From assembly GCA_963971425.1 (NCBI GenBank), contig OZ020521.1:3846501-3910500 (forward strand): a stretch of 64,000 bases of DNA, written 5' to 3'. The notes below the pieces were generated by a model. The model did not search any database, was not told the DNA's origin, and saw only the letters and a list, made by a program, of their open reading frames with translations. The DNA is from Bryoerythrophyllum caledonicum. Taxonomy: Eukaryota; Streptophyta; Bryopsida; Pottiales; Pottiaceae. How positions within the stretch are numbered: the stretch's first letter is position 1; each line of letters opens with the position of its first letter. Below are positions 18,901 to 61,594 of the stretch, in pieces. The position numbers and the translations under genes are program-made.

Positions 18901-21865
18901 AACTGTGATATTCAGCATCACTGCCACATAGTCTAGTCAGCGTCACTATATTGTTGGTTGTTATAATGGTCTAGACTTTAGGCTCAGGCAAGATATTGTC
19001 GTCACGTGTATTCGGACAAACTGTGATATTCAGCATCACTGCCACATAGTCTAGTCAGCGTCACAATATTGTTAGTTGTTATAATGGTCTAGACTTTAGG
19101 CTCAGGAAAAACATTGTCGTCACGTGTAATCGGACAAACTGTGATATTCAGCATCATTGCCACATAGATTAGTCAGCTTTCATATGTTGTTAGTTGCTAG
19201 AAATGTCCTAAACTTGGGGCTCAGGAAATAGATTGCCATCATTTGTAATCGGACAAACTGTGATATTCAGCATCACGGCCACACATAGCTTCGGCAACCC
19301 TACACGATTGTCAGCAGCAAGTCTTGTCCTGGTGTGCGGGCTCAGGAATAGATCATCGTCATTTGAATCAGACAAACTGTGATATTCAGCATCATTGCCG
19401 CACACAGACTAGGCAACCACATGTAACGCTATGTTTTTAAAAAATAAAAAAGGATCTTGAGGCTTACACGTTTGCTATGACCAGAAAGTTGAGAGACGAG
19501 TTCTCCAGAGCTTCGGTTAAACACCACTGCTGTACCATCGACGCCTCCTGATAACACAAGATCCTGCCGTCAAACAATTTCGCTAGTCAGGTTCGCCCTC
19601 AAACCAACAATATTTCAAAAATGTAATTTCACATCTAATACCATCCGATCGTAGGAAACGTGGACTCAAACTGAGACCAGCAATTCAATATCTGAAATGA
19701 AGCAAGACAGTGATTGCGGATAAGAAAAGGAAAGTTACCCTGGTCTGATGAATGTCGATGGACAGAATTCCTGGCTTCGAACTTGAGTGCAAGGGATGAC
19801 TAGCCAGCTGAGTGTAACTCTCTAAAGCATCAGGAGTGGCCAAAGCTGATGAAATCTGCACAAGTGATCCACTTGCTGCTTACAACTTCCACAAGCTTTT
19901 GAGTAAAAATTACGCATCGTGATACTTCGGCATCAAAATTATGTGCAACTCTACAAATAAAGAATAGAAGAACAGACTTAAGCGTCCAACAAGCTACACC
20001 CGCGTCTTCTTAAAAAAGACTTGCAATACTGACGTCTTAACTTAAATACAATCCACGGGGGAGCCAAAACGACAACCTAAAATTGAACAGTGTTGGCAAC
20101 AAACCTGGCGCTTTTTACGTTGACCAGAGAGACGTGCATTGCAGTCAGTTAACTCCTTGATAATATCAGATGTAATGCCCTGCCTTGGCTTCTTTCCAGG
20201 GCCCTCGGACTCTGCGTCTGCTTCAGAAGCTGTAGGAGCAATTCACTTCTTTGAGAACGAGATCCAACCCTCAACTATTTCACGAATTTACAACCACGGT
20301 CTACAATGAGGTCTAACTTGATATACCAATGTAGAGTGAATCGAAAGATGTAGCCTCTCGTTGGAAGTATTTAACAGCTTGATCCAATGAAGTATTGAAA
20401 GACGGCAGAAACCTTTAACAGTTTACTCATTGGCGCTTAGTAACTGTAAAAGAAGGTCACTAGAAGATCAAGTCCTTGACTGTGGTTCTAGATGTTCCGA
20501 ACCTCTTTTTCCGTTGCTGGAGACTGTGGGAGGACCAGCCGCAGAGATTGTTTCAGCAGCAGCAGGTGCTTGCCTCTCCGCGTTCAAAAGCATCTCCCTA
20601 GCCTCGTCCCTCTCTTTCTTCAAACGAGCAATCACTCGGCACGCAGCGTCATGCTACATAATTGCGTGAAAGATAAAACTGTGTTGTCACTCGTTTGAAC
20701 AGGAGAACAAAAAAACATATTCGAAATTACTCCTACACACAATCGCAGCTAGGATACATCGGCTGCACATCACACGTAAATAAGGAGCAATTGCAATTAG
20801 CCTATGTTACATTAGCTCACAGTCTGCTAGGCGAACACTCTGCGGGAGGGTGTTAGAACCTGATAGAGGGCATGACTCAGTTCTTGGCGTGCCGTGTTCA
20901 GCTGCTGCTCCAGAGCGTAGTTGGACAAGACGACCGCGTCCCACTCCTAGCTCACACGCACTCGATCAAGTGTTTAATGATTATACTTCCATAAAATGAA
21001 GAAGCAGGCAGAGACGATTCGAACATAATATAACTACCTACATCTTAAATTGATAATTGGCCTGAATATGCCAGCACTCATGACCGGATCAAACCGTTCA
21101 TAACAATTGCATGTTATCAATAGGTCAAATAAAATCTCAGATCAGCTAATTGCAAAAAGCCTAATTGCAGAATCACCTGATCATGTTAGATATTATGTGA
21201 TGTCTTCACCGTTCTTAACGCAAAGACAGCAAATTTCATTAAACCTAAATAGGCTTACATTCTGAAAGAGTCCAAGCATGCCCGGAATGCTAGCTGCTTG
21301 CAATGGTCTTGGCTTCACAGCCTGCATCAATCCGACAGCCTTCCTTTCTCAGCAACGAACGGTTAAGAAAATCACGCAATATCGAAACAACGCAATGCAG
21401 AACTAACGCAGCACATAGCTCCATCATCCCGAATCAGCACCTTGTTTGTCTTGACCGGAACGAGGTCCTCCGGGGACAAGGCATCACCAGTCACAGGATC
21501 CATTCCATTATCCTGCATTACCAGCACCTTCACGTCAGCTACGCTCTAACATGTAATCCACTCAAAATAACGAACAAAGAAAAAGTCATTATACCTCGAG
21601 ATGCTTGAGGATCAACCTCTTCTCGAACAACAATCCAGATTTTCTTGACACCACCGGGTCTTCAGGCGTCACGCCCGATACTGAAACCGAAAACGCATAC
21701 ATATTAGCTCCATTTCCATCTAACTTCCACGAAGTCAATCCATCCGCGCCCGTACAAACAACCTTAAAATGCTCAATCTCCGCCGGACGAGAAACCTTTC
21801 CACAACAACTGGATTCCTCAAACTCCAACCAACCCTAGGTCACAAAACTTACTGGCGCAAAACAT
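15966..21865 (-). CDS. PRP19: pre-mRNA-processing factor 19 (U-box/WD40 E3 ubiquitin ligase), 18 exons
   Basis: Core of the nineteen complex (plant MAC3), acting in spliceosome activation and ubiquitin ligation in the nucleus. Eighteen exons join in frame to 523 codons (522 aa), the usual plant length. Exons in order: 21865-21853, 21680-21595, 21512-21441, 21321-21259, 20946-20860, 20653-20503, 20229-20105, 19855-19739, 19563-19468, 18676-18617, 18473-18399, 18239-18135, 17851-17735, 17595-17518, 17035-16939, 16710-16659, 16457-16387 and 16069-15966. The protein begins [20 protein letters not shown] (U-box, about residues 1-70). A coiled-coil tetramerisation stretch follows ([20 protein letters not shown]), then a linker and C-terminal WD40 blades with [15 protein letters not shown] and VKLWDL motifs. 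Exon 6 uses the weaker donor GTTCGG. The intron between exons 9 and 10 holds a 118-bp minisatellite. No frameshift or missing exon was found. Confidence 0.97.
18857..19425. repeat. 118-bp minisatellite, nearly five copies, in a PRP19 intron
   Basis: The phrase GACAAACTGTGATATTCAGC starts at about 18897, 19015, 19133, 19252 and 19371, periods 118, 118, 119 and 119. Units diverge more toward the high-coordinate end. It lies wholly between exons 9 and 10 of PRP19. Confidence 0.93.
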
Positions 21866-23534: not shown

Positions 23535-26436
23535 CACTAAACGTCGCATTTAGTGTAGTCACACAAATAGTGTAATTACCCTACTACACTATTTGCGAAC
23601 TTGTTCACAACTAGTGTTAGCGGCCAACGACATTAATGATGCCTCCACCAACCGCTACTAGCTGTCAAGTATTTAATCTCTATGTTGACTTTTCTGTTTT
23701 CCACCTCTCCCTACCCCAATCATTCGCCTACCGGCCGTCATGCCTGAATTCTCTTCAATCAAACCCTATCTATAATTCCATCTCTTGCTCTCACCTTGTT
23801 TGCTCACGGGCTGGAATTCGGTATAGGGGTTGCTAGGGTTACTAGAATTCTGGGGTTTGAGGTGTCGAGGGCTTCAAGTTGGGATTCACAAAAAATCAGT
23901 CTTCAACTTCCTACGCCGGAGGGGGCTTATACCCCGACCTGCGCGGGAGCTGGCTGCAGGTGGCAAATCTTATGGGATAATTCTACTACGAGCTACGATT
24001 TCGTGCGGAGGACCAGGCGATTCTGTGCGAGCTACCCTGTGCAATTCCGTGCGGGCTGTGTGAACTCTTGAAGTCCTCTAGTCCGATTCCGACGGGTTGC
24101 CTGCGATTATTTCCGGGCTAATCCCCACGGGCTTTTTGGGGCGGGTTATACTCCACAGCTCCGAGTCGGCTTAGGGACAGTAGACCCAAACCATATGGGT
24201 TGACACACCGCCACGACATTTACCTCGCGTGACCACGGCCCCACCAGCAACACCAACGACCCGCGTGACCTCAACCCCCGCTCACAATGGATCAAAGTGA
24301 CGACGCAAGCGCCCAACCGCCCCCAGGTATGAATTTCATCCATTTCCAAAAGTTGAGTAGAAATCTCAAATGTAACTCTCGTTTTCCGTCTGCGCAGGGA
24401 CGGAATCATCAACTCCCATCCCACATCGTCGAGCGGTTCAGCAGGTTGCCACCATCCAAACACGACGGACCGTCGTGGCGTGGATGGTGGAGGACCACGC
24501 GCTCCATGGCACTCATGGACTCACCACCCGCGCCATCACAACCTTTCCAAAGCATTTCCGCGGCCAACATCGAACCAACCTCGTCCGCGCTAGCCGTTGG
24601 TGGAACCTACGCGACAGCATCCTTCCTGCAGAAAACAGCTCGCACCCCCAAGTCGCCCAAATCACGCGCAGCACCATGGGCATCCAAAAGCGGATTCTCA
24701 CCAAAATTGCCGGAGGACGAGGGCCCCGTCGTTCGCTTTGGGTGCAATGGCTATATCCAAAGTTGCTACAATCCTTTGAAGTGTACCGCACCTCTGGGGT
24801 AAAATTCTCTTCCGCCATCTTTATAGAACTAGCCCTTTCTATTCTTTTATCGATAGATTCACCTTACAACTCCCAATCAACCGACCCTAAGGACAATGTT
24901 CTTTTAACAAAGAAAATAACAAATGTATGGATTTCCCATTTTATGGGTGCCTATAGTATAGTATTATTATCACAAAGAGGCCATCTAACTTGTAGTCCGG
25001 AAAAAGAGGCACGCATTGAAATGAACACGGCTTTCCATTCAGGCATTTTACACCGTGGGTTTCTTTCGGGTGAATTTGATGAAAATTTGATGGAAAATTT
25101 GGACGAAACCCACTTTTCCATCAATGTTGACAATGGTAAAACCCTTGGCTTTCGTGGAGATACTTCCGTGAACTACGCGGATGTTGTTGCCGGCGGAGAG
25201 GCAATGACCATGGTGGTTAGGATTTCCGGGGGCCGTAGAGCAATCATAGAGGCACCAATGTTGATATTCTCTAACCCAAACAGTAATTACCCAATTAGAG
25301 GTTTGGAAGACTCTATTCCGGGTGTTAGTTACCGTACGGGGCCCAAAGGGTGGATGGACCAACATTTGTTTCCACAATATTTTGAGGAAGCTAGGGCTTA
25401 CCAACCGGACATCCACAACCGTATAAAATACGTGTGGGTGGACAATTGTACGGCCCACAATGTAACCCCTCATTTGGCGGGCGTTTTAGCGGTCAAGAGA
25501 ACCGTTTTAAGATACTTACCTCCTTGTGCGGCTCACCTTTGCCAACCGGCCGACACGTTTATTATTTCAAAAATCAAAGACGCATGGACGAAGCGTTGGG
25601 AGGTGGAAAAAACCGACCTTATCCAAGCAAGTGCATGGCAAAATACTCCACGTGATGACGGTCAATGGTCCGGGAAGCTTCAAAATCCGAGTAAGCAATT
25701 TTTTCTTCAATTAGCAGCAAATGTTGTGGATGATGTAAACCGCATGGTTGATTCTCAACATATTTCATATGCCCGAAAAGCCATGATTAGGTGCGGTTTA
25801 TCATTAGGTTTAGATGGCACTTGGACTATTGAGCAACTATTTCCCCATCTTCGTGAAATTATTGCAAAATATCATCCTTACTTTGAAGGACAACAAATTC
25901 CAAATTTGCCTATGGCAAATTAATGTATGAGTCCATTTTTACATGAATTTGCAATTCTACTTTCATTTTCCATACATATTTTTTTACCCCTATTTTATTC
26001 AATATATTGCATGTCTTATGATTTTAGTCTTTTTTATACAAATGTTCCTTCATTTTTGCCACATTGTTGAATTTACATCACCAAACTCTGGAAATGCCCA
26101 TAACTTACTCATATTTTCTTCAAATTAAACATATGATATGTTTTTTGAAATCTACAGAAAATGTAGATGTCAAAAAACATCTGATAACTGTAATTCCGAT
26201 CCTTTTTGAGTGACTTATGCTCCTTTGAATAGTGCTGATTTTATTCACTACGGCAAGATTTATCATACACTAGTTGTGCACAAGTAAAAAAAAACCCACC
26301 CGTTTTTACTGCAATTCACATACAGTGTAATGTTTCACATTTAGTGTAATCTTGTGTCGTTACACTAATTGTAATTCTTCCTTTTAGTGTAAGAGTTCGT
26401 ATTTAGTGTAGACGACACTAAATGCGATGTTTAGTG
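23535..26436 (+). mobile_element. pogo-like (Tc1/mariner superfamily) DNA transposon, apparently complete
   Basis: 2902 bp with terminal inverted repeats of about 26 bp starting CACTAAAC(G/A)TCGC, two mismatches between ends, flanked by TA at 23533-23534 and 26437-26438. Several subterminal TACACTAAA-type motifs lie near both ends, mostly at the right. It encodes one intact, singly spliced transposase. It lies inside a LINE/SINE 3'-tail unit. Removing the element and one TA leaves 29 bases between AACTCC and GTGTTTG, the same number as in the related tail at 61750-61785, which supports TA as the duplicated target. The outer CAC/GTG bases make the target palindromic (CACTAGTG). Confidence 0.88.
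24287..25923 (+). CDS. pogo-like DDE transposase, intact, one intron
   Basis: Cuts and pastes the surrounding element. Exon 1 is 24287-24326 (MDQSDDASAQPPPG) and exon 2 is 24398-25923; the 71-bp intron has GTATGA and GCGCAG ends. The joined frame is 522 codons (521 aa) without interruption. The N-terminal part has a CENP-B-like helix-turn-helix region (FPKHFRGQHRTNL, ASRWWNLRD). The DDE_1-type catalytic core shows LDETHFSINVD (first Asp), WVDNCTAHN (second Asp) and LPPCAAHLCQPAD (third Asp), with about 36 residues between the second and third. ARKAMIRCG near the C-terminus is also typical of this pogo-related lineage as I recall it. All three catalytic positions are present, so an active enzyme is possible. 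The neighbouring genes are unrelated. Confidence 0.9.
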
Positions 26437-37733: not shown

Positions 37734-37922
37734 TTGTCTACAATAATTTAGATGGCATTAATGCATTTAGCCTATTCAAAACAATCTTGCAAGAGAAGGG
37801 CTTCCAAAATCAAACCAAATTCTTTTTTTTTCTTCTAAATTTAATTTATCATAAAGTCCAAAGCCAAACAATGAACATAACCTATTTCTTCTTACAAGTA
37901 GAAGGTACATGATTATTTGATT

Positions 37923-38023
37923 GAAAATATCAAATTTTGTATTAATACATATTGAAGATTAAAAAAATAATTACAGTGTGCCCAAAAACTTTGATTCCTC
38001 TTGAACTGTAATTGTTGCACTGC
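37923..38023 (+). repeat. repeat B, copy 1, left part
   Basis: Matches 44425-44530: GAAAATATCAAATTTTGT, CCCAAAAACTTTGA and CTGTAATTGTTGCA(C/G)TG. The right part of this copy continues at 42376 after a 4.35-kb insertion. Confidence 0.75.
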
Positions 38024-42375: not shown

Positions 42376-42476
42376 ACTGTAGAAAGCTTTTCTTTTGTTA
42401 AAAAATCTCAAAGTTCAATTGCATGTTAGTTATTTGTATGAAATTAGTTCCCCAAGTGACACATAAGCATGTATTC
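42376..42476 (+). repeat. repeat B, copy 1, right part
   Basis: Matches 44535-44635: AAGCTTTTCTTTTG, AATCTCAAAGTTCAATTGCA and AAGTGACACATA. Confidence 0.75.
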
Positions 42477-42999
42477 CTTTGGACCGATGATCTCGAAAAA
42501 ATACGACGCTGACCCAGATTGGAATTAAGCCTGCAATAATCCGAGACGCTAAATCTAGACTCCAAAAGTCCCTTAAGCCAGGGAATCTGCATACTAACAA
42601 GATACGACTCCCCTCCAGGCAATGTGTGCTCCAAGGGAGTATGTGTAAATCATGATGGATGAACTGCATAAAAAGGGTCATTGAGGATATTACAAATGTA
42701 GTAATGATTGATCAGAAGGGTGTTTTATTCATTAGTATCTGGCCCAATAAATTAGCTAACATGCGTGAACAAGTGAGCATGCCTCTTTAGCAACATGTTG
42801 CACTTCATTGTTTAGAAATTCACTTAGCAAAAGATATTGCAATACGTATTGGTCATTTCTTGGATGCCCTTACGTAGGTCGAGGTTCAACTAGCTTAGGT
42901 AAGCCATGTGTTTGTTCATGGGTTCATTTCTTGGTGGACCAAAATGCCAATGAAAAGTTGAACTTGAAAAATTTGAGGAACTCAAGAAGACCCGGCCTA
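42477..42999. other. spacer, nothing recognised
   Basis: Short frames only. Left border of the multi-gene element at about 43 kb could not be fixed. Confidence 0.4.
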
Positions 43000-43170
43000 G
43001 ATTTATGATGATGTTGGGCTTTCTTATCTTTTCCTCAAAAACCATATCATTCAGCCATTAGGAGCCCCCTAATTTCTAGGACGAGGTAGTATCTTGATGG
43101 ACCTACTTGTATGTTCCTTGGAACAACTTTGAAGCTGACATTGGCAACACGGTAAAGGATTGATGTGGTG

Positions 43171-43187
43171 GTCGGCGGGCCGCCGAC
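43171..43187 (+). repeat. 17-bp palindrome, copy 1
   Basis: GTCGGCGGGCCGCCGAC, a perfect inverted repeat with a one-base centre. About 85 bases before it lies GTAGTATCTTGATGGACCTA, also found in changed form before copy 2. Confidence 0.9.
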
Positions 43188-43295
43188 TACTCGAACCGCC
43201 CAAGGCCAAGCTCCGTGAGAGGCCAATGTTTGGTTGTCATCTTCTTGGATGATAATACGGTCATTTATTGATTTGACAAAAACGAAGTGGATACA

Positions 43296-43526
43296 TCATC
43301 GTTTTGTATCCACAAAAACGAAGTGGATACATACAACGTTTTGGGCCTCCCCCTCCTCGACTAGTGGAAGTACAACGTTTGGATCATCATCCTCCTGATC
43401 CACGTGGTTGGTAGGACGAACTTTCGTGAGGTCTATGTATTGTTGCAGAACATTAACAAAAGCAATCAATGGCGAGTCGTTGATAGGGTGGCAACTCGGG
43501 CTCTCCGGTGGACTGTCCTTATACAA
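43296..43526 (-). pseudogene. coding relic, unknown, acidic
   Basis: Minus-strand frame starting MYKDSPPESPSCHPINDSPL, with QEDDDPNVVLPLVEEGEA. No family recognised. Part of the minus-strand gene set of the multi-gene element. Confidence 0.35.
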
Positions 43527-43697
43527 TAATGATCGAGTCTTCAGCCATCAGAACCAACTCTTCAATCTCTTCGTCACAATTGTGCACCTAAAGGCAAAAG
43601 TCGATGTCATGCATAGAATATGTGATGAGCCAAGTGCAACGGACATTGTAATGTAGTATCTTGACAGACCTACCTATATGGAGATATTAGATATACA

Positions 43698-43714
43698 GTC
43701 GGCGGCCAGCCGAC
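43698..43714 (+). repeat. 17-bp palindrome, copy 2
   Basis: GTCGGCGGCCAGCCGAC followed by AAAG. Confidence 0.9.
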
Positions 43715-43872
43715 AAAGAAGTGGAACATGAAAATAAATTTGGATTGCACATTGCAAACTCAGAAGTATAAACATAGCAATGGAGCATTGTGTTTGCAAA
43801 GTCCAGTACTTTTATAAGGAAGATATTGTGCTAAAGAGCAAGAGAAATATACTAGATGCACTATTTCGTGAA

Positions 43873-44231
43873 CTAACCTCCGGAAGTATTGCTTGTGTCG
43901 TGCGTCATAGAAAGAGTAGTAGGGGAAAGACCTTTGTTGGAATGATCCACAGAGTCAGGAGACATTGACAACCCTCTTGGTGTAGAATCCAAGCTACTAC
44001 TCCTCTTTGCTTTTCTACCCATTTTTGGAAGAGGTGGCGACCGCTTCCGAGATGACACCTCCTTGTTGTTCCTGGAATTGCTCCTTGTCGACGGCACCCC
44101 GGAGGAAACGACACCTTCTTCCAATGGCGCCTTGGGGTTCTTGGCATTGCTCCTTTGCTTCTTTTGTGGTCGCTCACTGGCAGCGGAACTCTAGAGAGTT
44201 TGACCTCCAATGATTTTGGAATTCGCAACAA
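43873..44231 (-). pseudogene. coding relic, Ser/Lys/Arg-rich
   Basis: Minus-strand frame through 44124-43873 rich in Ser, Arg and Lys (SRKRSPPLPKMGRKAKRSSS). Low-complexity basic tails of this sort are common in nuclear proteins of transposons. No fold recognised. Confidence 0.3.
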
Positions 44232-44424
44232 GAGTATTTCGGTGGGGGGAAATAATCTTCATACTCAATTATTTTTTCTAGCACGCACTACTCGTACCGC
44301 TGCTTGCTGCACAACATCACCAAATTTTGGAGTAGTCGACGGGCATGATTCAAAAGAAGACGCTGGATTTTATTTTTTAAATATCAAATTTTGTGTTAAA
44401 AATATCAAAAATCTCAAATAAATA

Positions 44425-44640
44425 TTTAAATGAAAATATCAAATTTTGTGTTAAATATATATGGAAGATAAAAAAAAAAGAATTACATTGTCCCAAAAAC
44501 TTTGACTCCTCTTGAAGTGTAATTGTTGCAGTGGAAAAAGCTTTTCTTTTGTTAAAAAATCTCAAAGTTCAATTGCATGTTAGTTAATTGTATGAGATTA
44601 GTTCTCTAAGTGACACATAGGCATGTATTTTCTAAATTTT
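44425..44640 (+). repeat. repeat B, copy 2 (uninterrupted)
   Basis: Left half matches 37923-38023 and right half matches 42376-42476, in the same order and orientation. It preserves the empty site of the 4.35-kb insertion. Confidence 0.8.
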
Positions 44641-44904
44641 TTGTAGATGTCAAAAAACATCTCATACGCTTTATTCGGACAATATTTGACCAAGTTATGG
44701 CCATCGCTAGTTGTTGACATGAAAGAATATGAGGCATGCGCGCCTCCCCCCCCAAGGCGTCCGCGCCCCCTTCCAAGGCGCAGGCGCCCCTTGCACACAT
44801 GGCGTTATAAGTCGTCCATATCATCTGACCATTCTAACTTTTGGTAAATTGTATAAAAAAATGACCGCAGTAATTTTTACTAGCGACTGGCTATGTCCGA
44901 AAAA

Positions 44905-45970
44905 TGTCTAGGACCGACCAGTCCGTACGTCCGATCCGCCAAATTCAGGCCATGTCTGTCCTTTTCAACAACTCTGAATGGGATAATGTCGTGATCTACG
45001 AAATAACGGCCCCATCCGAATCCTTGGGCTCCGCATTACCGAGAGCTTTGCACGCAAGATATGAATGTTGGCCACCAATAATGTACCTCTGGCACATTGG
45101 TGAATTCCACCATTTGTAGTGTACTCCGTCAAGCACAACCTCGACGTCTATGGTTGCGTGAATCCTTGGAAGCACAAATTCTATCATATGCAGCCTTTAC
45201 CACTCTCTTTTGTTCTTGGAGGTCTCCACAGAGGTACACAGTACAGAGGCGGTTTTGTCCGCCATGGTTCGAAACTCTTATAGAATAGGATGAGTTACTA
45301 TTTGCTTTTTGGGATGATGGGCTCGTACTTCATTGAGTCTGGAGCAACGTGGATTTTTTATGAAGGAATTTTTGTTGGGAGCTATTTGTGTCCAAATGGA
45401 TAGCAAGTGCTAAGACCATCTTCAAACGCCTTGTACATTATGTCCAGCTCCTCACCACTTGTCTTCACCGTCAGGTGGTTTGCAAATGACAATGCATGAC
45501 CACCTTCAGCTGCTTCTTTGATGCCCTCTTCTTGGGCACCTTGAAAGACAATTCTTCGATTTCGGGAGTTCCGGCAACTTCAGTCACAGCATCGCTAGCC
45601 GTTTTTTTGGAGTTCTTGGGTTTCTTCCCCAAATTTTCTTTGAAGCCGTTATCCCGACCTTGGAGTTCTCCGCGTCCTTGAGGTCCTTAGCTTTTCCGAA
45701 ACAAGTCAGCAAATCCTCCGTGTTTTTGGGAGTTGCATCAAGGAACTGCATATCCCTCTCCTACGCAGTTATGCATAGGTCTTGTCCACAAGTCAGCCAT
45801 GGAATTTGTACCGTGATGAGATTGGGGTTTTTCACCCCCATTTTGACCTTCACTTGAATTAAGAGTCTAAATTTAGACTTTTCTTGGGATCTTTCTTTCA
45901 TGTCCAATACTGACATCAAGTTGCCATCCATAAAGGATCTGTTGTTGTGGTTTCCATTTATATCCAACTC
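44905..45970 (-). pseudogene. coding relic with a ParB-like GGQH motif
   Basis: The minus-strand frame 45187-44996 contains RYIIGGQHSYLACKALG at about 45088-45040, resembling the G-G-x-H-R-x-x-A-x-x-x-L/G motif of ParB/Srx-like domains. Upstream on the same strand, 45967-45761 reads VKVKMGVKNPNLITVQIPW and further coding-like sequence in other frames lies between. The assignment to ParB-like proteins is tentative. The frames are interrupted. It probably belongs to the minus-strand operon-like side of the multi-gene element. Confidence 0.35.
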
Positions 45971-46174
45971 GGCTCTGCTCTCTTGGGTGATAGTCGACTA
46001 AGGTGGTACTAATAAACTGTTACAAATCTTTTTTTGCCATGTCACAACTGCTCTTTCGATCACATGCCCAATTTACTATTGATTTCAGATGTTGGTCTAC
46101 AAAATGTGAGTCCTGACTTCCATGCCATCACACATATCATAAATTTTCACCGATTCGGTCTACAGTTCAATGAG

Positions 46175-46239
46175 AAGAAGTATATTTGTAATTACTATAT
46201 ACTTGTCACAATTTTATAAATGTAACAAATATACTTCTT
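46175..46239. repeat. 15-bp perfect inverted repeat (hairpin)
   Basis: AAGAAGTATATTTGT at 46175-46189 and its exact complement at 46225-46239, with a 35-bp loop. Confidence 0.9.
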
Positions 46240-47186
46240 GTGGAAGATCAAAAGTTCACAATTCTACAAAACTTTCAGATTACATGCACAACATGTTCTT
46301 TTCGGTCATTCCAAATGAAAAATTATGATCTAAGACTTCAATTTGCTTGTAATAGCAAAAAATGGGTTGATTGTCAAAAATGCTTCAAATGGAGGTTAAA
46401 TGTTGATTTTTGCTCCAAATTCTTGTCGAACCTTCTTTAGCATACAAAAATCTATCGTAAAATATAAAGTGTTTTGAAAAATACTTTTTTTTTCCATCAT
46501 TTTCTTCAGAACCTAGTTTTCGGTGCCTTGAAAAAACATATATACTGCGTCGTATTTTTGGTATATTTTCAGTCTCTGTAGTATGCAATATTCTCATCTC
46601 GGGAAAGGGTTTGGCCACTTATAGAGCAACTTGTGTTATGACAACACAAAGTCCCAATAATCAGCACTTAGTTCAAGAGATTTTCTATTCATCTAACATT
46701 TTGTTGGCCATGATTTCTTCACACCTAAAAAATGGACGGTTGGCATTCAACAACAATTTAACAAAGGGCTTCAAAACAAACATACTATGTAGTATATTAT
46801 TTTTGCCCACTTTGTACCCCCCTTAGTGTACTTACACCCTCTTTTCTCCAGGAGATGCCCTAGGTAGTCAATTGTGAGTGTACCTTACATATTACTCTCG
46901 GCTCATATTCAGTTAGCAATCTCATATCCGCTTCCTGATCCACAATACTCCCTATCAACTACTTGGGCCTATTTGGAATTCCACTCTCACGCAAGAACAA
47001 AGCAGAACTTTGATCAGATCCCCTGCCATACACTTCATCGGCGGGCAACCAACAACCACTCTCAATGTGTATTCCACATAACAAGATACTAAGATACTTT
47101 TATAACATCTTCATATGAAATAGTACTCTTCGATGGAACCTCACTACATCCTCTGCAGATCACATGTGCAAAAATGATGTAGGCAA

Positions 47187-47440
47187 CTAGTACGCCGTCG
47201 GCTGTGCGCCCATGAAACAACACATGAGTACATGACATGACATGACTTGATTTCAAGAGAATAAGGCTTCAACATGACTAAACTCAGCATCTGTCGGCGG
47301 CCAGTCGACCAAACACCATGTACCATAAAGACTTCAACAAGATTGAATTGAACATCCATTGGCTAGGAGCCAACAAAACAACATATACCAATAGGGCTTC
47401 AATAAGACCAAACTCAGAATCCATTGTCCAGTCGCCAACG
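47187..47440 (+). repeat. 66-bp tandem repeat carrying the palindrome
   Basis: Three to four degenerate units: from about 47287, 47353 and 47420, with an earlier longer unit from about 47187. Each has the palindrome-like core (GTCGGCGGCCAGTCGAC at 47293, TTGGCTAGGAGCCAA at 47359, TTGTCCAGTCGCCAAC at 47424), then ACCAT(A)-like sequence and GRCTTCAACAAGA. Confidence 0.7.
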
Positions 47441-48775
47441 GTGATAGGGTACATACCTCTTTGACGTTGCCATTTTGTCGGCGGGTGGGATATCCTCCTC
47501 GGTGGATAGCTTGTACTACAACGCCTCTGCTCTCCTCTAACGTTCGTCGGCTGGTGATGATCAACGCTTCAGCCGATGGCTCCAAATTCCAACAACCAAA
47601 TCTTAATCGCGTTTAACCAAACGAGAACGCAAAATGAGGAAGGACCCAATGACAAATGATCTGAAATAGGAAGACGACAAGGATTTATACTTGGATCCGG
47701 CGGACCATTGCAGTTGTTTGATCTTCATTCAAAGATAAACGAATGGCCACGACTTAATTAAGGGTTCTCAAGTTTGATCTAGGTGTCAATTTCCATGTAA
47801 CATGCCAACTCAAATGGTCGTATTGGATAATACCAAAAATGATTTCATATTCATTTGAGATGACATTTTGGTTTTAAACGACTTCGTAGTAAACATGGAA
47901 CCTAGGATCAAGGAGCCATGATACTAGGATATGAAGTGACATCTTAAACTTCAATATCGCATAGGTCATCATTGGGCCTAGAATCTAGGGTCCTAGACCT
48001 ACGATGTCACTTTGACTGATTTGGTTTCAGGGAAATTTCATCTTGACACTTTGATTAACTTGAAATCTCCTGAAAAGGGAGCGATCTTGACAACCCATGA
48101 GCGGGAGTCAATGATCAATTTTAGCGACAATTTCAAATTTATAGTTTGCGCACACTCATTGGACGAGGATGACGATATGACTTCAAATCCTGGAACTCCT
48201 CCGTCATTTTTGGACTCTCATGTCTCATATTCAATATTTCTGCCCTCTCCCGCTTGCAATTGGAACTAATTCTGTAGAAGTTCTTTTTGCACGGCATCAT
48301 TATTTTTGGTCTTGCACGAGTTTGTTATTTCTAGGCCCGGACGAGTCCATAATTCCACTGATCTTCCACAAGTCCATTACTTTTCCTGATTAAGCGTCAG
48401 TCATTATTTCCTACAAATTCTTGCACAATTTTCTTTCATTGAACATTTCGTTGTTGACCATCATATGATCAGTTAATAACTCTTTCATGGTTCTGGCGGA
48501 TAAAGACTAAGATTTTGTTTAGAATCCAAGTACGACTAACTATGTTCCTACCACTTGTGTTCTTTGTTCCATAGTCTGTCGGCGGATAATAAAATCCACT
48601 CACCAAATGCCTGAAGCATCCTTCTCGTGGTAGACATTTTCTGAAGCTTTCAATCGTCCATGGCAGCCGACAACTTTGTGCAAGGGACCTATCGCCTACC
48701 AACCCAATAGCTAATTAAGGTAGTAAAGGGGTTGTTGGATCGGTTCACCACCTGTAGGCTTTCAGAGCCGTCCTC

Positions 48776-48792
48776 GTCGGCAGAAAGCCGAC
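48776..48792 (+). repeat. 17-bp palindrome copy upstream of the dUTPase-like ORF
   Basis: GTCGGCAGAAAGCCGAC followed by AAAA, about 55 bases before the coding-like sequence that begins SMDREPILLF. Confidence 0.88.
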
Positions 48793-48839
48793 AAAATCAC
48801 TGTAGCTGCCATTCCATTATCCATCGTCTCAAGTGGTTT

Positions 48840-49694
48840 CAGTATGGACCGTGAACCCATTCTATTGTTCATAAAGAACAGGAAGTCTAGAGGATGGAAG
48901 CTCCACAGAGGTGTTCATGTTGCTCTCACTGATTCCGGCCTTTACTTTGTGCAGGTCGAACGGTCGTTGAGAGAGTCATTCTCAAGGATCTATGGATTGT
49001 TCGTGTGAAGGTGATTAAAATGTCCGATGCACTCAAAATGCCTATTCCATTTCCAGCGGATGTCGTATCCATGTTGTGCGACTGCAAAGGACGATCGATC
49101 AACAGGGAGGGGGCTGATCTTAGGCCTTACACTCACATCAAACTAGCAGAGGAGCCTACGAAAAACCCTTCCCCACTAGTTTGGGACATAGAGCTTGTTC
49201 AAGAGTTCATGGACCTTCGCGACAGCATGGAAGTGGCCCTCCTTGATGTCAGCGGTGATCAGAGATGTTGTGCAGGAGTTGGAGTCATCCACAAATGCTC
49301 CCCAAAGGGTATGTGGTACGGGTTTCTCATTCCTCACAGCTTATTTTTGTTTGTCAAAGTTCAGTCTGTCAATCCTAGATACATTGGTCATCTTGCACAT
49401 TGCGGAATTCCCACCATTGTCGCTCCCGGCGATTGTGTGGGCTACTTGGTCCTATGGAGAGGCTACCGGGTTTGTCCCTTTCAACTTGATGTTGGCTCTC
49501 ATAATGCACTGGAGGATGACTGTACTTTGAGTCACAATGAAATGGAAGCTTCCGACGACGACCACCAAGATAGGGTATATGACGATAATCATAATCATGG
49601 GGTCTTTAGTTATTTGAGGCATCCAAAGCAGAGACTGAAATGGGCATTGGAAGTCATGAGGACCTCTCATTGGCGGGTCGCCAACAACAAGTAA
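48840..49694 (+). CDS. ORF with a dUTPase-like domain (degenerate)
   Basis: The main open frame runs 49005-49694 and is open further upstream; an acceptor-like TGTGCAG precedes GTCGAACGG at 48956, so an upstream exon is possible, and coding-like sequence from 48844 (MDREPILLFIKNRKSRGWKL) is in another frame. Residues about 75-152 of the 49005 frame resemble a trimeric dUTPase core: SPKGMWYGFLIPHSLF in place of the G-x-Y-G...P-R-S-S-L block, VQSVNPRYIGHL in place of G-V-I-D-x-x-Y-R-G, and PGDCVGYLVL in place of G-D-R-I-A-Q-L. Key catalytic residues are changed, so enzymatic activity is doubtful. The C-terminus is acidic (EASDDDHQD). One of the palindromes forms the last codons (49670-49684). 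Confidence 0.45.
49670..49684 (+). repeat. 15-bp palindrome copy at the end of the dUTPase-like ORF
   Basis: TTGGCGGGTCGCCAA followed by CAACAAG. A compensating variant: both arms carry TTGG/CCAA rather than GTCGG/CCGAC. Confidence 0.85.
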
Positions 49695-49829
49695 TCATTC
49701 TTCTGATGATCCATCTGCTACCCACTTTGGTTTACGTGATCCAAATTTGTTTCCAAATCAACCACAATAGAGGAATGAGTACAGCCATCTCCTAGATGAC
49801 AACTTTGATACAGTTGGACGTGCAATGGT

Positions 49830-52560
49830 CAAAGTGTGCTTGCGCATGAGGCATGCAATTTAGCGATTGTGAGGGACACTAATATCGAGGTCCTCTTTGT
49901 CTCAAAGTATAAGGATCTTCATATAACAACAATGCGCTGGAGGATATCTCACACGCGCCTTGAAGGTGGTCCACTTCTTTTTGAGTGCCTTACATTCTCC
50001 TCAGCGCACAGTCAAGCTGCATGTAAGGATGACGAGCTTGAGGTAGTGCCTAAGGATCCTTAAAGAGGTGTTTGTCAAAAGCTTTTGTCGAAAGACGATA
50101 TGTCGCTCTCAAAGTTCCGGAGCCTTCAGTACCCAGATGAGTGCCGGCTTGTTTGCTCAAAAAGGTGTTGTAAAAAACAATCATGCCAATTGTTTTGTTC
50201 GGAAGACAATCGTAGAATCCGAAAAAAGTACTACACGTCAAGCTTCAAACATCGATGTGAGACGGCCTATGTTGTTTTGGACCAGCTTCACCCAATTTCT
50301 GGATTCCGCAAGTCCTACATCACCCTCTAGATGTCAATGTCTGTGAAGTCTCTTGGTACCACACTCACGGCGCGTCCAAGTCTGCATATTACAACTACAA
50401 ATATGATTCCAAGATCAGTTGCTTGAATGACAGCCACGGTAACACAAGTATAATGCGCCCCAAGCCACACACAATTCAAGCTCATGGGACCATATCCAAC
50501 ATTATCGACGACAATGCGGACCAGATGCCAAATAGGTTATGTGTAACAGAAAATAAGAAGGTCGCAATGTTGAAGGTGCTTTCTGAGGCAATAAACTGGA
50601 ATCACTTACCTAACATGGGCAACTTTGTAAGAATTGTCTTTAATTCTTGTTATCTATGCGTGTCGCATGGTTTATCTTCTCCATCCCTTTCATCGAGCTC
50701 CGTCGGCGGCCCGCCAACAAAGCTCATTCATTGCCTCATGAGCATATCTTCGATACCATCATTCTTCTGCATAAGTGAATGATTCTAAAAAATGTTGCAT
50801 CCAGCTAAAGGTTGAATGCAATGCCAAGCCGATTTGCAATCCGTTGTGGGTAACATGAATATGAGGTTGTTTAGAAATGTAGAAATTTAGTTTGAAGGTA
50901 GCAACTTCTCCAAGTACACTAAATGCAACTTCCTCATTATTTGTTATCGCAAAATATTCTAGCGGGTCAAACAAATGGCAAAGACTCATAAATGACATAA
51001 ACAAGCACCTTAACTACGAAAGGGCGTGCAAAAATGTTTACTCCGGTAGGTTTTCTCAGTCCATTTAGTATCCATCTGAGTTCCTTTGCATAGTTCATGA
51101 CAAGATGGATACCTCAAAGACTCCCCCTCCTGGAATGCAATGGATTACCAAGGTCACCGCAAGGCTTGGTCAGATTCTAATTTCATGTACTAGCATGCTT
51201 ATTCATGGATATGGCGACGGTGCCTACGCTCATTACTTGAAGTCGTTATAGCCGGGGGACTCCAATTTCACCATCTCCTCACTCTGCCATGTTCTAAGAG
51301 TATTAGAGAGGCGCCCCGTGCAAGAGTCCAAAGAGCTTTTCACATGTCCACCCCAAAATCATTTATTTGGTGCTTTACTTCATGGGAAGTCCAGATGTAG
51401 TTCCTAAATTCCCAAATCTAAAGGGGATCCGTTCCCACATGCTCTTCCCTATAGACCGCAAGTCCTGCTCCTCCACAAGTTATTTCTCCAACTTGATAAC
51501 TCCACCAAAGATAACAAGAATCCGCTCCTCATGGCGTTTTGCTTGCTCTAACACCTAGGAGAATTTTCAAGGAAGTTATGTGGGATTCTTGATTGTTGGT
51601 CACACTTTTGACACACATTTTAGTTACCTTTCAAAACTCATCCATCAGAAGAATACTTATTGTTTGATTGACCTCATGAAAGCCTTCATGGACTTGTAGA
51701 AGATTGTCGCGTTCATTCTTCAACTTGTCCAAGAGGTTGCGGATTTTAAGAGTTACATTGTTGGCTACCATCACGACGGCAGTAATAAGATTATGGGACT
51801 TAGAGAGATGTATCCATTTAAGTTTTACGTAGAGGAAGAAGGAGATGACGATGGATGGTTGATCATCAAATATAAAAAGTGTGCAACTGATTCATCATGG
51901 CTTCCTCAAAGTATGCCATTCAAGGTCACCTATCCTATATGCATCTCTCTTTAACTTTCTTCGCCTTTGCCGTCGACCTTTTCCATCCGTGGCCGACCAA
52001 TGGACCTAAACATTTATGTCATCGGTGTGCTTAAAGTTTATGTTCTCATTCAATTTATGCGTTTGACTCTCCTTGGGCTCTTTCACGTAAGCCTCTCAAG
52101 AAATGGACCGCGGATGAACACGGTAATCCAAGCCTTCATGTTAGAGATCCAAAGTCAGCCCTCTTTAAGCCCCTAAGGAAAGACGTTCATGTTAACCAGA
52201 ACAAAATAAACCTTAAAAAAGAGGTTGCTTCGGCCACTGAAGTCAGCAAGAAGCAATCCTTCATCAAGAACAAGATTGTCAAATATATTGAGTTTTTGAA
52301 GACTGGCATGTCCCACGACAAGAGATATATAGAGGATATGACCCCGTACATTTTATATTGGGAGTGTATCCATTAACTTATCTCTGGTCCCCTTCCACAA
52401 AACCAAGAGTCTCTCCAAGAAGGAATCTGGCCTACTTCAAACTAGATTCGTGATCATGCTTGCAGCTTTGCGTTGCCCAACAACGTCATTGGCATTCCGG
52501 ACATTATCCTTGAGGACGACCCGAGGCATATCCTTTCTGTAGCCTTGAATTGAGGCGTTG
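49830..52560 (+). pseudogene. DDE transposase relic (D-N-x-x-K-D-N-K-N type)
   Basis: Coherent pieces on the plus strand in order: a Cys-rich block near 50100-50210 (ECRLVCSKRCCKKQSCQLFC), a helix-turn-helix-like block near 50330-50560 (CEVSWYHTHGASKSAYYNYK, then ADQMPNRLCV), VHDKMDTSKTPPPGMQW near 51093 (candidate first Asp), MLIHGYGDGAYAHY near 51200, LQLDNSTKDNKN near 51485 (second Asp), IVGHTFDTHFSYLSKLIHQ near 51591 (third acidic block) and GYHHDGSNKIMGLREMYPF near 51765. The layout fits a DDE transposase family common in streptophyte genomes, as I remember it; I cannot name the superfamily. A GTAAGAATT donor-like site at about 50628 suggests an intron holding the palindrome at 50702. 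Several frame changes and stops interrupt it. Confidence 0.6.
50702..50718 (+). repeat. 17-bp palindrome copy within the transposase region
   Basis: GTCGGCGGCCCGCCAAC followed by AAAG. It lies in sequence that looks non-coding between two transposase blocks. Confidence 0.88.
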
Positions 52561-53231
52561 GAAGTTGTCCTTCAATCCATTCCAAGACGTTTTATTTGGT
52601 GATTTTGTCCTCTGTAATTTTTATGTAAAGGGAACCTTCTCTTCCAGAGGTACAAAACTGCAAAATTGTTATGTACTCGCATTGCTGTCCGTCCCACACT
52701 AAAAATGGCCCTCCCAATTTTCATCATATTCCGCCAGAGGCAGTGAGCGCTGCAATTGCAACTCTGGAGGCTAGTGGCATCTTAGTCTATTGTCGAGATG
52801 AGGACTGATTCTTTTTGCAGTCAACTACCCGCCGACGGATTGTTGCCCAACCCTATACATACAACTCAACTGCTGCCAGATTGCATTGTGGGTACTTCTT
52901 GGTTATTTGATGGCAAGGTCCTACTCTAATAGATAGAGGAGAGCGTTCTAGTCAGCTACCCATTGACTGCAGCTATACGTTAGACTCAATATCTGTTATT
53001 CCAAACTTTTGACATTAGCGATCTCTTAAGGATTGTGTTTTGACCGTTTATCATATTGGCAAACATCAATGTTTGTCAATGTGTTGCCAGCCGATGGCTT
53101 CATTGTTTTGTAACCAGCTTATTTCTAATCATATCTACCCTCTTTTAGCTTACAGACCACCATCTCTTGTCTAATGTATATCTCTACTATTCGCATGATT
53201 TGACTCCTTTATTCTATAGAATTTTACGGTC

Positions 53232-53558
53232 ATGATTGCAAACTTTGTGCATGACGTCATCCTCGAGCATGGTTTGTTTCACCTTATTCTTGAGTACAGT
53301 TTGTTTTACCTTAGTCTCAAGCACTATGTCTCCGTTGTCCGCTGGCTCTTGCATTTGAATTCCTCCTACCTCATCGTCGTGGTACAATACACAAATATCA
53401 ATACTGAAGATGAAGAGTCAAGGTTGTCGCCGCATCTCCATAGTCGGCGGCCCCCCAAGAAGAAAAGGAAGGTTTACAGTCAGAATTTTAACAATCCTTT
53501 GCAAATTCTCAATATCCTTAATAACTTCATCCATACTTGCATTTTTTTGGCAATCTAG
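53232..53558 (+). CDS. short ORF with a classical nuclear localisation signal
   Basis: 108 codons open. Near residue 75, after an acidic stretch (TEDEE), stands PPKKKRKV, a canonical monopartite nuclear localisation signal. A palindrome variant (53443-53459) overlaps the codons before it. The rest is hydrophobic and unrecognised; the N-terminal half may be non-coding. Probably the tail of a nuclear protein of the multi-gene element. Confidence 0.3.
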   Translation: MIANFVHDVILEHGLFHLILEYSLFYLSLKHYVSVVRWLLHLNSSYLIVVVQYTNINTEDEESRLSPHLHSRRPPKKKRKVYSQNFNNPLQILNILNNFIHTCIFLAI

Positions 53559-53639
53559 TAGGTGTATTTGGTCATCGCAAGTATGTATTTTGGTCCACAA
53601 TTGATTGTTTTGTCCAAATTATGCTAAACATTTGTTACT

Positions 53640-60234: not shown

Positions 60235-61145
60235 GGCTTTTTGAAAAATCGGTCAAGTTCCTATGGTGTCAATTTCCAACATTCCACTTTGAAATTTTTA
60301 CTATAGAAAGACATTACCAAGAGCTCAGTGGGAAAATAATTTTTTCCTAAATTGGACATTTTATGAAAAAGTTATAGGGTTTTGAATTTGAAATGGGGAG
60401 GGCGGGCACCTCGGGCACCTCCAAAAACTTTTGCTATTGAAAGTGAGATTTTCAGTACTCGCAAGTAATATTATTTCCCTTCATGTTGTCAAAAAAAAGT
60501 TCTTGTCTTTAGTGAAAAATAGCATACCAACCCAAGTCAAACATTTTCACACATTGTCACTCATTGTTGGGCAAGGTACCAAAAAAACTTCTTCTTTTCC
60601 ACATAAAACCTAGAGATCTTCATATTTTTCACTTTTTATTTTTCCCACAACAATATGTAATGTAAACCTTCTTATTGACCATTCGGATTATCAATCGAAA
60701 ACATATTAAGTTCAAAAAAAATTAAAGTGTGAATTAACAAATTTCGAGCCTCCACTCCTTGCACACTTGTTTTGAATATGCTACACCCTGTCTCTACCTC
60801 TAAAAATTGGTGTGTAAGGAGCTAACATCATGCTTAACAAGATGGTAATAGATTTAGACCTTGTGTAGTGAAATTTTTTGACATCAACTGAAATCAAAGT
60901 CTGCTGATCCACTAAACGCAGGGAAGAAAATGAACCATTTGCTTGACTTCAAACACTCTAATCTTTCAATCCGTGCGGTCAAAGTTTATGAAATTTTGTA
61001 CATGTATTACTTAATAAGCCTTTATTGAGATCCTACGGTCAGAACTAAAAATCAAAGTTTTTGTTACCTTCTTTATTCATTGCACTAAAATCCATTAATT
61101 TTGAAGTGTTTTTGGTGTAAAACTGTCTTGGTACCTTAGGGGTTA
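60235..61145 (+). repeat. dispersed repeat R1, long copy
   Basis: The left third matches 63520-63790 (GTTCCTATGGTGTCAATTTC, GAAAAAGTTATAGGG, AAATGGGGA) and the right part matches 27900-28290. Ends CTTAGGGGTTAAACG, close to the TIR motif of the 10121 element. Probably a non-autonomous DNA transposon family; no coding capacity. Confidence 0.6.
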
Positions 61146-61594
61146 AACGTTAGAATGTGCCATTGGCGGTCGCAGTAGTTTACATGTATGGTGTCATCTG
61201 TGAACATGATAAGGTTCACATACTGAAATGACCCCTGAATGAAAGATGATAGTTAAAGAATCTTCAATCCAAAGGTGTAAGTCTTGCTACATTTCAATAC
61301 GTTTTGTGTTTCCTATGGAGTAAAATATATGCTTGTATATACAGTTCTCGACTAACATTTAAGGGTTAAACATTAGTTGAGAACCGTACACACAAGCCCG
61401 TATTTTACTCTATAAAATATTTTTACAATGTAATAAAGTTTAGCAAGACTTACACCTTTGGATTGAAGATTCTTCCATTAATGTCTCTCATTTGGAGGTC
61501 ATCTCAATATTTGAACCTCTTCATGTTCAAATACGACACCATACATATAGAATATTGTAGCTGCTAACGGCACCTTTTGACGTTTAACCCTTAA
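61140..61594. mobile_element. fold-back element: two arms of about 225 bp in inverted orientation
   Basis: The left arm (61140-61363) is the imperfect reverse complement of the right arm (61361-61594): both carry TCTTCAATCCAAAGGTGTAA or its complement, GTATGGTGTC/GACACCATAC, and GAGTAAAATA/TATTTTACTC. A TTAAACRTT-type motif stands at both ends and at the centre. No coding capacity. Confidence 0.85.

What the first reader, a model, noticed from the sequence alone, without database searches (positions are those of the whole stretch)
43171..53459. A short palindrome repeated about a dozen times, nearly always in the same orientation, across one 10-kb block
Seen directly: variants of GTCGGCGGNNNGCCRACAAA at 43171, 43698, 47293, 47359, 47424, 48776, 49670, 50702 and 53443, plus half-sites near 47476, 47546, 48577 and 48664. 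The asymmetric CAAA on one side shows a common orientation; one half-site near 52829 may be reversed. Variants such as TTGGCG...CGCCAA keep the arms complementary, as expected if the hairpin or dyad itself matters. The family was not seen in the other 50 kb. Possible roles: RNA 3'-end hairpin, binding site of the element's own transposase or ParB-like protein, or a small inserted repeat. The function is inference.
Basis: partly seen in the sequence, partly recalled or inferred. Interest (0 to 1): 0.78.

Follow-up and report, generated by a model that had tools for sequence, protein, structure and literature searches.

The report
Repeated DNA dyad in decayed plant transposon
A short two-armed DNA word is repeated about a dozen times around the remains of what looks like a plant jumping gene, and most likely marks where a DNA-binding protein, perhaps the element's own, once gripped it; the idea is known from other plant transposons, though this motif was not found described.

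Summary
A dyad TYGGC-N5-GCCRA occurs exactly 6 times in 64 kb, 6 of 6 inside 43.0-53.6 kb; spacers of 3, 4, 6, 7 and 8 give none. With one mismatch there are 15, of which 11 lie in the block, against a mean of 4.05 in shuffles. A common orientation is only partly supported: flanks favour + in 8 of 11 copies, and 4 of those 8 are units of one array.

The block holds a broken gene with two collinear pieces matching Pfam DUF7869 above its cut-off; I take it to be a decayed transposon (inference). Copies share about 20 nt in otherwise unlike flanks, except for one roughly 65-nt tandem array.

The "compensatory" arm changes do not demonstrate a selected hairpin: 13 of 20 arm changes are CpG transitions, pair 1/17 is broken by A-C four times, and pair 3/15 shows no significant association. 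A hairpin in minus-strand RNA is disfavoured, not excluded.

Best reading: sites for a dimeric DNA-binding protein, as with TnpA in CACTA or VANC in VANDAL21. No binding protein, terminal repeat or second copy was identified, and no eukaryotic genome could be searched.

The parts
43171..43187 (.). dyad copy, exact (GTCGGCGGGCCGCCGAC); flanks score better in the reverse direction
43698..43714 (+). dyad copy, exact, followed by AAA; 8-nt flanks nevertheless score slightly better in the reverse direction
47293..47309 (+). dyad copy, one mismatch, array unit
47358..47374 (+). dyad copy, exact in TYGGC-N5-GCCRA form (TTGGC..GCCAA), array unit
47423..47439 (+). dyad copy, one mismatch, last array unit, weak
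47197..47457 (+). diverged tandem array of about 65-nt units (first unit about 96 nt), each carrying one dyad
   Evidence: alignment A1; not reported as an array by Tandem Repeats Finder
47477..47484 (+). half-site GTCGGCGG
47546..47551 (+). half-site GTCGGC
48578..48585 (+). half-site GTCGGCGG
48666..48671 (+). half-site GCCGAC followed by AAC
48776..48792 (+). dyad copy, exact, upstream of the 48933-49691 open frame and inside another stop-free frame 48727-49005
48933..49691 (+). open frame of 253 aa upstream of the DUF7869 pieces; no Pfam family above cut-off; possibly the N-terminal part of the same broken gene (inference)
49669..49685 (+). dyad copy, exact (TTGGC..GCCAA form), at the end of the 253-aa open frame
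50702..50718 (+). dyad copy, exact, inside the stop-free frame 50261-50779
50886..51569 (+). broken DUF7869 piece (profile 57-82 of 192 at window 51468-51545), stops inside the frame
   Evidence: 34.5 bits, cut-off 26
51577..51945 (+). continuation of DUF7869 in another frame (profile 95-191 of 192)
   Evidence: 26.5 bits, cut-off 26
52817..52836 (-). degenerate reversed copy (GTCGGCGGGTAGTTGAC read on the minus strand)
53443..53459 (+). dyad copy, one mismatch in the TYGGC-N5-GCCRA form, inside the stop-free frame 53220-53555

Best explanation
The repeated word is a dispersed double-stranded DNA binding site, TYGGC-N5-GCCRA with TCC-like bases to the left and AAA-like bases to the right in several copies, within the remains of a large DNA transposon that carried a DUF7869 gene in a probable land-plant genome. 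Shown: the fixed-spacer dyad, its restriction to the block, the broken DUF7869 gene, the tandem array upstream of it. Inferred: a homodimeric protein with half-sites one helical turn apart bound it; that protein was encoded by the element (transposase or a helper); binding of many sites recruited the protein for excision, transcription control or anti-silencing, as in CACTA or VANDAL elements. The copies have since decayed, largely through CpG transitions.
For: 6 of 6 exact dyads in the block and 0 with spacers 3, 4, 6, 7, 8; 15 versus 4.05 one-mismatch matches. Flanks unlike apart from a few bases, so sites do not look like pieces of a longer duplicated unit except in the array. DUF7869 in two collinear pieces between the dyads. 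CpG changes hit only the outer CpG base of each arm (9 at C3 or G15, 0 at G4 or C14; p 0.004, or 7 to 0 and p 0.016 without one array unit), as if GGC and GCC were needed, although the search consensus allowed A at position 15 and so favours this. Passages of PMC5735166: VANC21 sites are short motifs at high density in the same orientation, often in tandem repeats, in non-coding parts of VANDAL21. Passages of PMC2613891: CACTA subterminal repeats form stem-loops and are bound by TNPA-like proteins.
Against: No DNA-binding protein is identified and no binding was measured. Whether DUF7869 is a transposase is my recall; no paper in the library names it. No terminal inverted repeat was found in six flank comparisons, so the element's ends are unknown and all dyads may not belong to one element. 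Sites are spread over 10 kb rather than confined to the ends as in CACTA; 4 of 11 lie inside stop-free frames of 90 aa or more. Only one locus was seen.
Confidence: 0.5

Rival explanations
1. The dyads are remnants of a short repeat spread by duplication (minisatellite units, gene conversion or a small inserted palindrome) without a binding function.
For: At least three to four neighbouring copies are diverged tandem units; two others at 43171 and 43698 have a similar 28-nt stretch upstream (43086-43113 and 43653-43680, 86%).
Against: Outside the array the copies share little more than the dyad itself; self-comparison of the block found no longer similarity around the dyads at E 0.01.
Confidence: 0.2
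2. The dyad is an RNA hairpin, for example at transcript 3' ends, acting in the transcript of the element.
For: 3 of 9 copies folded as + RNA have z below -3 (43171, 43698, 48776); on the minus strand many mismatches become G-U pairs: 6 of 66 pairs broken instead of 12 of 66. Three copies carry T3 with A15, which keeps that pair.
Against: 2 of 9 copies (47037, 53443) do not form the stem as + RNA. Pair 1/17 is A-C in four copies; pair 3/15 shows no significant association (p 0.20, 10 copies; 47197 left out). 13 of 20 arm changes are CpG transitions. Rfam gave 0 matches at gathering threshold in the window. Copies lie inside stop-free frames and upstream of the gene, not only after genes.
Confidence: 0.12
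3. The dyads are sites for a host regulator captured by the element (GCCGAC is the core of plant DRE sites bound by DREB/CBF proteins, GCCGCC that of the GCC box; both recalled).
For: GTCGGCGGC read on the other strand contains both recalled cores; the array lies between a possible minus-strand gene and the plus-strand DUF7869 gene.
Against: RCCGAC is not special to the block (7 of 20 in the block, 3.3 expected by length). DRE proteins are recalled to need single sites, not a dyad with a fixed 5-nt spacer; TTGGC..GCCAA forms lose GCCGAC.
Confidence: 0.12
4. The word is a protein-coding motif: in the frame that starts with GTC, copies read V/I-G-G-x-P-T-K/T.
For: 9 of 11 copies read V or I, then G, at the first two codons with no stop in the seven codons; variation at positions 3 and 15 falls on third codon positions in this frame.
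Against: In that frame 7 of 11 copies lie in stop-free stretches of 54 aa or less and only 50702 in one above 90 aa; third positions 6 and 12 are nearly fixed; a coding motif need not be a palindrome.
Confidence: 0.04

Closest known systems
VANC-binding motifs of Arabidopsis VANDAL21 and VANDAL6 transposons (Hosaka et al. 2017, PMC5735166; passages seen)
   Same: Short motif dense in one family of element, arrayed in the same orientation, partly in tandem repeats, upstream of genes and in introns; CpG-bearing target context is subject to methylation.
   Different: VANC21 motif is YAGTATTAY, not a dyad; VANDAL are Mutator-like, here the gene is DUF7869; no VANC-like protein was found; some copies here lie in stop-free frames; only one locus seen.
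CACTA (En/Spm, Tgm) subterminal repeats bound by TNPA-like proteins (PMC2613891; passages seen)
   Same: Repeated motif able to form stem-loops, GC-rich portion, direct and inverted copies, asymmetric distribution; one soybean submotif is TTGGCAG.
   Different: CACTA repeats lie within hundreds of bases of the ends (159 and 732 bp in the soybean element); here 10 kb apart; no CACTA ends or CACTA transposase family found by the Pfam six-frame scan at E 0.1.
Animal NFI site TTGGC-N5-GCCAA (consensus recalled; papers seen only in a listing)
   Same: Same half-site and same 5-nt spacer as the TTGGC..GCCAA copies: a model for a dimer on one face of DNA.
   Different: NFI is recalled as animal-specific; no NFI-like protein in the block; most copies here are TCGGC..GCCGA. 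Analogy of geometry only.

Membership tests
CACTA (En/Spm) transposon with TnpA subterminal repeats | CACTA terminal inverted repeats | tested here: not met
   Six flank-to-flank inverted comparisons, none beyond the 95% level of shuffles; CACTA and TAGTG words occur but mark no paired ends
CACTA (En/Spm) transposon with TnpA subterminal repeats | CACTA transposase domain | tested here: not met
   Six-frame Pfam scan of 42.0-55.5 kb at E 0.1 gave only DUF7869 and a sub-cut-off DUF7821
CACTA (En/Spm) transposon with TnpA subterminal repeats | repeated motif near both ends | tested here: inconclusive
   Repeated dyad present, ends unknown
VANDAL element with VANC anti-silencing motif | dense motif in common orientation, partly in tandem repeats, restricted to the element | tested here: inconclusive
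   Restriction in this window and array met; orientation partly met; genome-wide restriction not testable
VANDAL element with VANC anti-silencing motif | Mutator-like transposase and VANC gene | tested here: not met
   No Mutator-type Pfam match in the six-frame scan at E 0.1
DUF7869-bearing element | DUF7869 domain | tested here: met
   34.5 and 26.5 bits, cut-off 26, collinear profile 57-82 and 95-191, in two frames with stops in the first
Rfam-type structured RNA | match to a described RNA family | tested here: not met
   0 matches at gathering threshold in the window
NFI binding site | bound by an NFI protein | not testable with these tools
   Geometry matches recalled consensus; no binding data

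The most novel reading that the evidence does not exclude
A family of large plant DNA transposons with a DUF7869 transposase carries its own dispersed, one-turn dyad read by an element-encoded dimer that counters host methylation or assembles the transposition complex: an anti-silencing or assembly system evolved independently of VANDAL and CACTA.
Probability: 0.15. Interest if true: 0.65.

Novelty: new variant of a known kind. Interest (0 to 1): 0.38.

Why it matters
If the dyads are binding sites of an element-encoded protein, they give a handle on a transposon group whose key domain is still called unknown, and a third plant case, after TnpA sites and VANC motifs, of an element marking itself with many copies of one word. 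It also warns that paired arm changes in a CpG-rich palindrome can mimic compensatory evolution.

Tried and rejected
Helitron-type 3' hairpin: considered from the sequence only; no CTRR ending stood at a constant distance after the dyads by eye; not tested by tool. CACTA or other terminal inverted repeats: a first comparison used a scoring so lenient that alignments ran the full length and is void; repeated with stricter scoring, six comparisons, none beyond the 95% level. The pair 42677-42710 / 53492-53525 flanks nearly all dyads but 59 of 100 shuffles do as well. Giant-virus insertion with mimivirus-like hairpins: an early idea (literature listing only), dropped when the gene proved to be DUF7869 and no relative turned up in viral contigs. 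Structure of the 253-aa frame: single-sequence model, mean pLDDT 32.7, no use. Solved structures: 2 matches with E above 1. Pattern in viral contigs: two contigs with one match each, 65% and 67% G+C in the stretches held, with one and two dyads by TYGGC-N5-GCCRA, taken as chance. Literature: four N-written forms of the dyad had 0 occurrences in the 15 papers listed of 67 that hold any of six strings; one further search for dispersed palindromic sites gave 5 papers, none opened. Results against my reading: flanks of 43171 and 43698 point the other way; 4 of 11 dyads lie in stop-free frames of 90 aa or more; the minus-strand hairpin is broken in only 6 of 66 pairs.
Full report
What was checked. 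The window is 64 kb, 41% G+C, with a copia-type gag and reverse transcriptase, a bZIP gene and a class I tRNA synthetase gene; I infer a land-plant genome, but no genome is held for it and no eukaryotic collection was searchable, so everything below rests on one locus.

The dyad is real. Written as TYGGC-N5-GCCRA it has 6 exact matches in the window, 6 of 6 in 43000-53600, and none with spacer 3, 4, 6, 7 or 8. With one mismatch there are 15 in the window and 11 in the block; 100 shuffles of the window average 4.05 and reach at most 13, and 30 shuffles of the block average 1.2 and reach at most 4. The pattern was formulated from the copies, so the numbers flatter it somewhat. The word GTCGGCGG occurs 7 times on the + strand, all in the block.

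Orientation is weaker than claimed. Because the core is a palindrome, direction must come from outside it. Leave-one-out scoring of 8-nt flanks favours + in 8 of 11 copies, of which 4 are units of one tandem array; 47037 is nearly a tie, 43171 and 43698 go the other way, and 52829 is best read as reversed.

What surrounds it. A + strand gene between the dyads matches Pfam DUF7869: 34.5 bits for 50886-51569 (profile 57-82 best) and 26.5 bits for 51577-51945 (profile 95-191), cut-off 26, collinear but in different frames and with stops in the first piece; in the long six-frame translation the first piece alone scored 24 bits, below the cut-off. The gene is therefore broken. That DUF7869 is a transposase-like domain is recall and inference; no paper in the library names it. 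An open frame of 253 aa lies upstream at 48933-49691 without a Pfam family above cut-off, and its single-sequence model is useless. No other Pfam family passed its cut-off in the six-frame scan of 42.0-55.5 kb at E 0.1. No terminal repeats were found.

How the copies are related. Units at 47197, 47293, 47358 and 47423 align beyond the dyad and form a diverged tandem array, too diverged for Tandem Repeats Finder at score 30. Two copies at 43171 and 43698 have a similar 28-nt stretch upstream. Apart from these, self-comparison of the block shows no similarity around dyads at E 0.01. So most copies share only about 20 nt, which is how binding sites look.

Does the hairpin matter? Against the majority sequence the arms of the 11 copies carry 20 changes, 13 of them transitions at CpG positions. 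Single changes at pair 3/15 occur in four further copies, the association is not significant (p 0.20, 10 copies, 47197 left out), and pair 1/17 becomes A-C in four copies without compensation. As + RNA 12 of 66 pairs are broken, as minus RNA 6 of 66; of 9 copies folded as + RNA, 3 have z below -3 and 2 do not form the stem, and 3 folded as minus RNA gave z -3.4, -1.6 and -0.8. Two copies (47197, 47423) were not folded. A minus-strand hairpin is thus disfavoured, not excluded. The CpG changes fall 9 to 0 on the outer base of each arm's CpG, leaving GGC and GCC intact (p 0.004; 7 to 0, p 0.016 without 47423); this suggests constraint on the half-site, but the consensus used to find copies allowed A at position 15, so it is not clean. 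CpG depletion in the block equals that of the rest (0.70 each).

Most likely mechanism. Half-sites of five bases separated by five put their centres 10 bp apart, one turn of DNA, the geometry of a dimer reading one face; the recalled animal NFI site has the same layout. With restriction to a block holding a transposon-like gene, the economical reading is a set of sites for an element-encoded protein. Published parallels, seen in passages: VANC21 motifs are dense, in the same orientation, in tandem repeats and upstream or intronic parts of VANDAL21 (PMC5735166); CACTA subterminal motifs form stem-loops and are bound by TNPA-like proteins (PMC2613891). Neither family's defining features are met here, so this works like them but is not filed as either.

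Limits. Four of eleven dyads lie inside stop-free frames of at least 90 aa (48776, 49669, 50702, 53443), which is against a purely non-coding distribution unless introns are involved; this could not be settled. A coding reading of the word (V/I-G-G-x-P-T-K/T) was examined and is unlikely, since 7 of 11 copies lie in stop-free stretches of 54 aa or less in that frame and only one in a long one.

Noticed in passing
24376-25920 +: Open frame of 515 aa matching Pfam DDE_1 (35.8 bits, cut-off 22): a pogo/Tc1-like transposase-type gene, apparently intact over this stretch.
   Followed up: no
42378-42475, 44418-44704, 37909-38022, 26094-26219: The stretch 44418-44704 is a mosaic of repeats seen elsewhere in the window: 93% to 42378-42475, 85% to 37909-38022, about 80% to 26094-26167 reversed; probably small inserted elements at the left part of the block.
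   Followed up: partly
18847-19283: Tandem repeat of four units with a period of about 118 nt.
   Followed up: no
61136-61594: Inverted repeat with 168-nt arms, 78% complementary, 123 nt apart.
   Followed up: no
53232-53558 +: The open frame over the 53443 dyad reads PPKKKRKV just after it, identical in letters to the recalled SV40-type nuclear localisation signal; may be chance.
   Followed up: no
43876-45900 -: Lysine- and serine-rich and other coding-like stretches on the minus strand, without a Pfam match at E 0.1; possibly a second, divergently transcribed gene of the element.
   Followed up: partly
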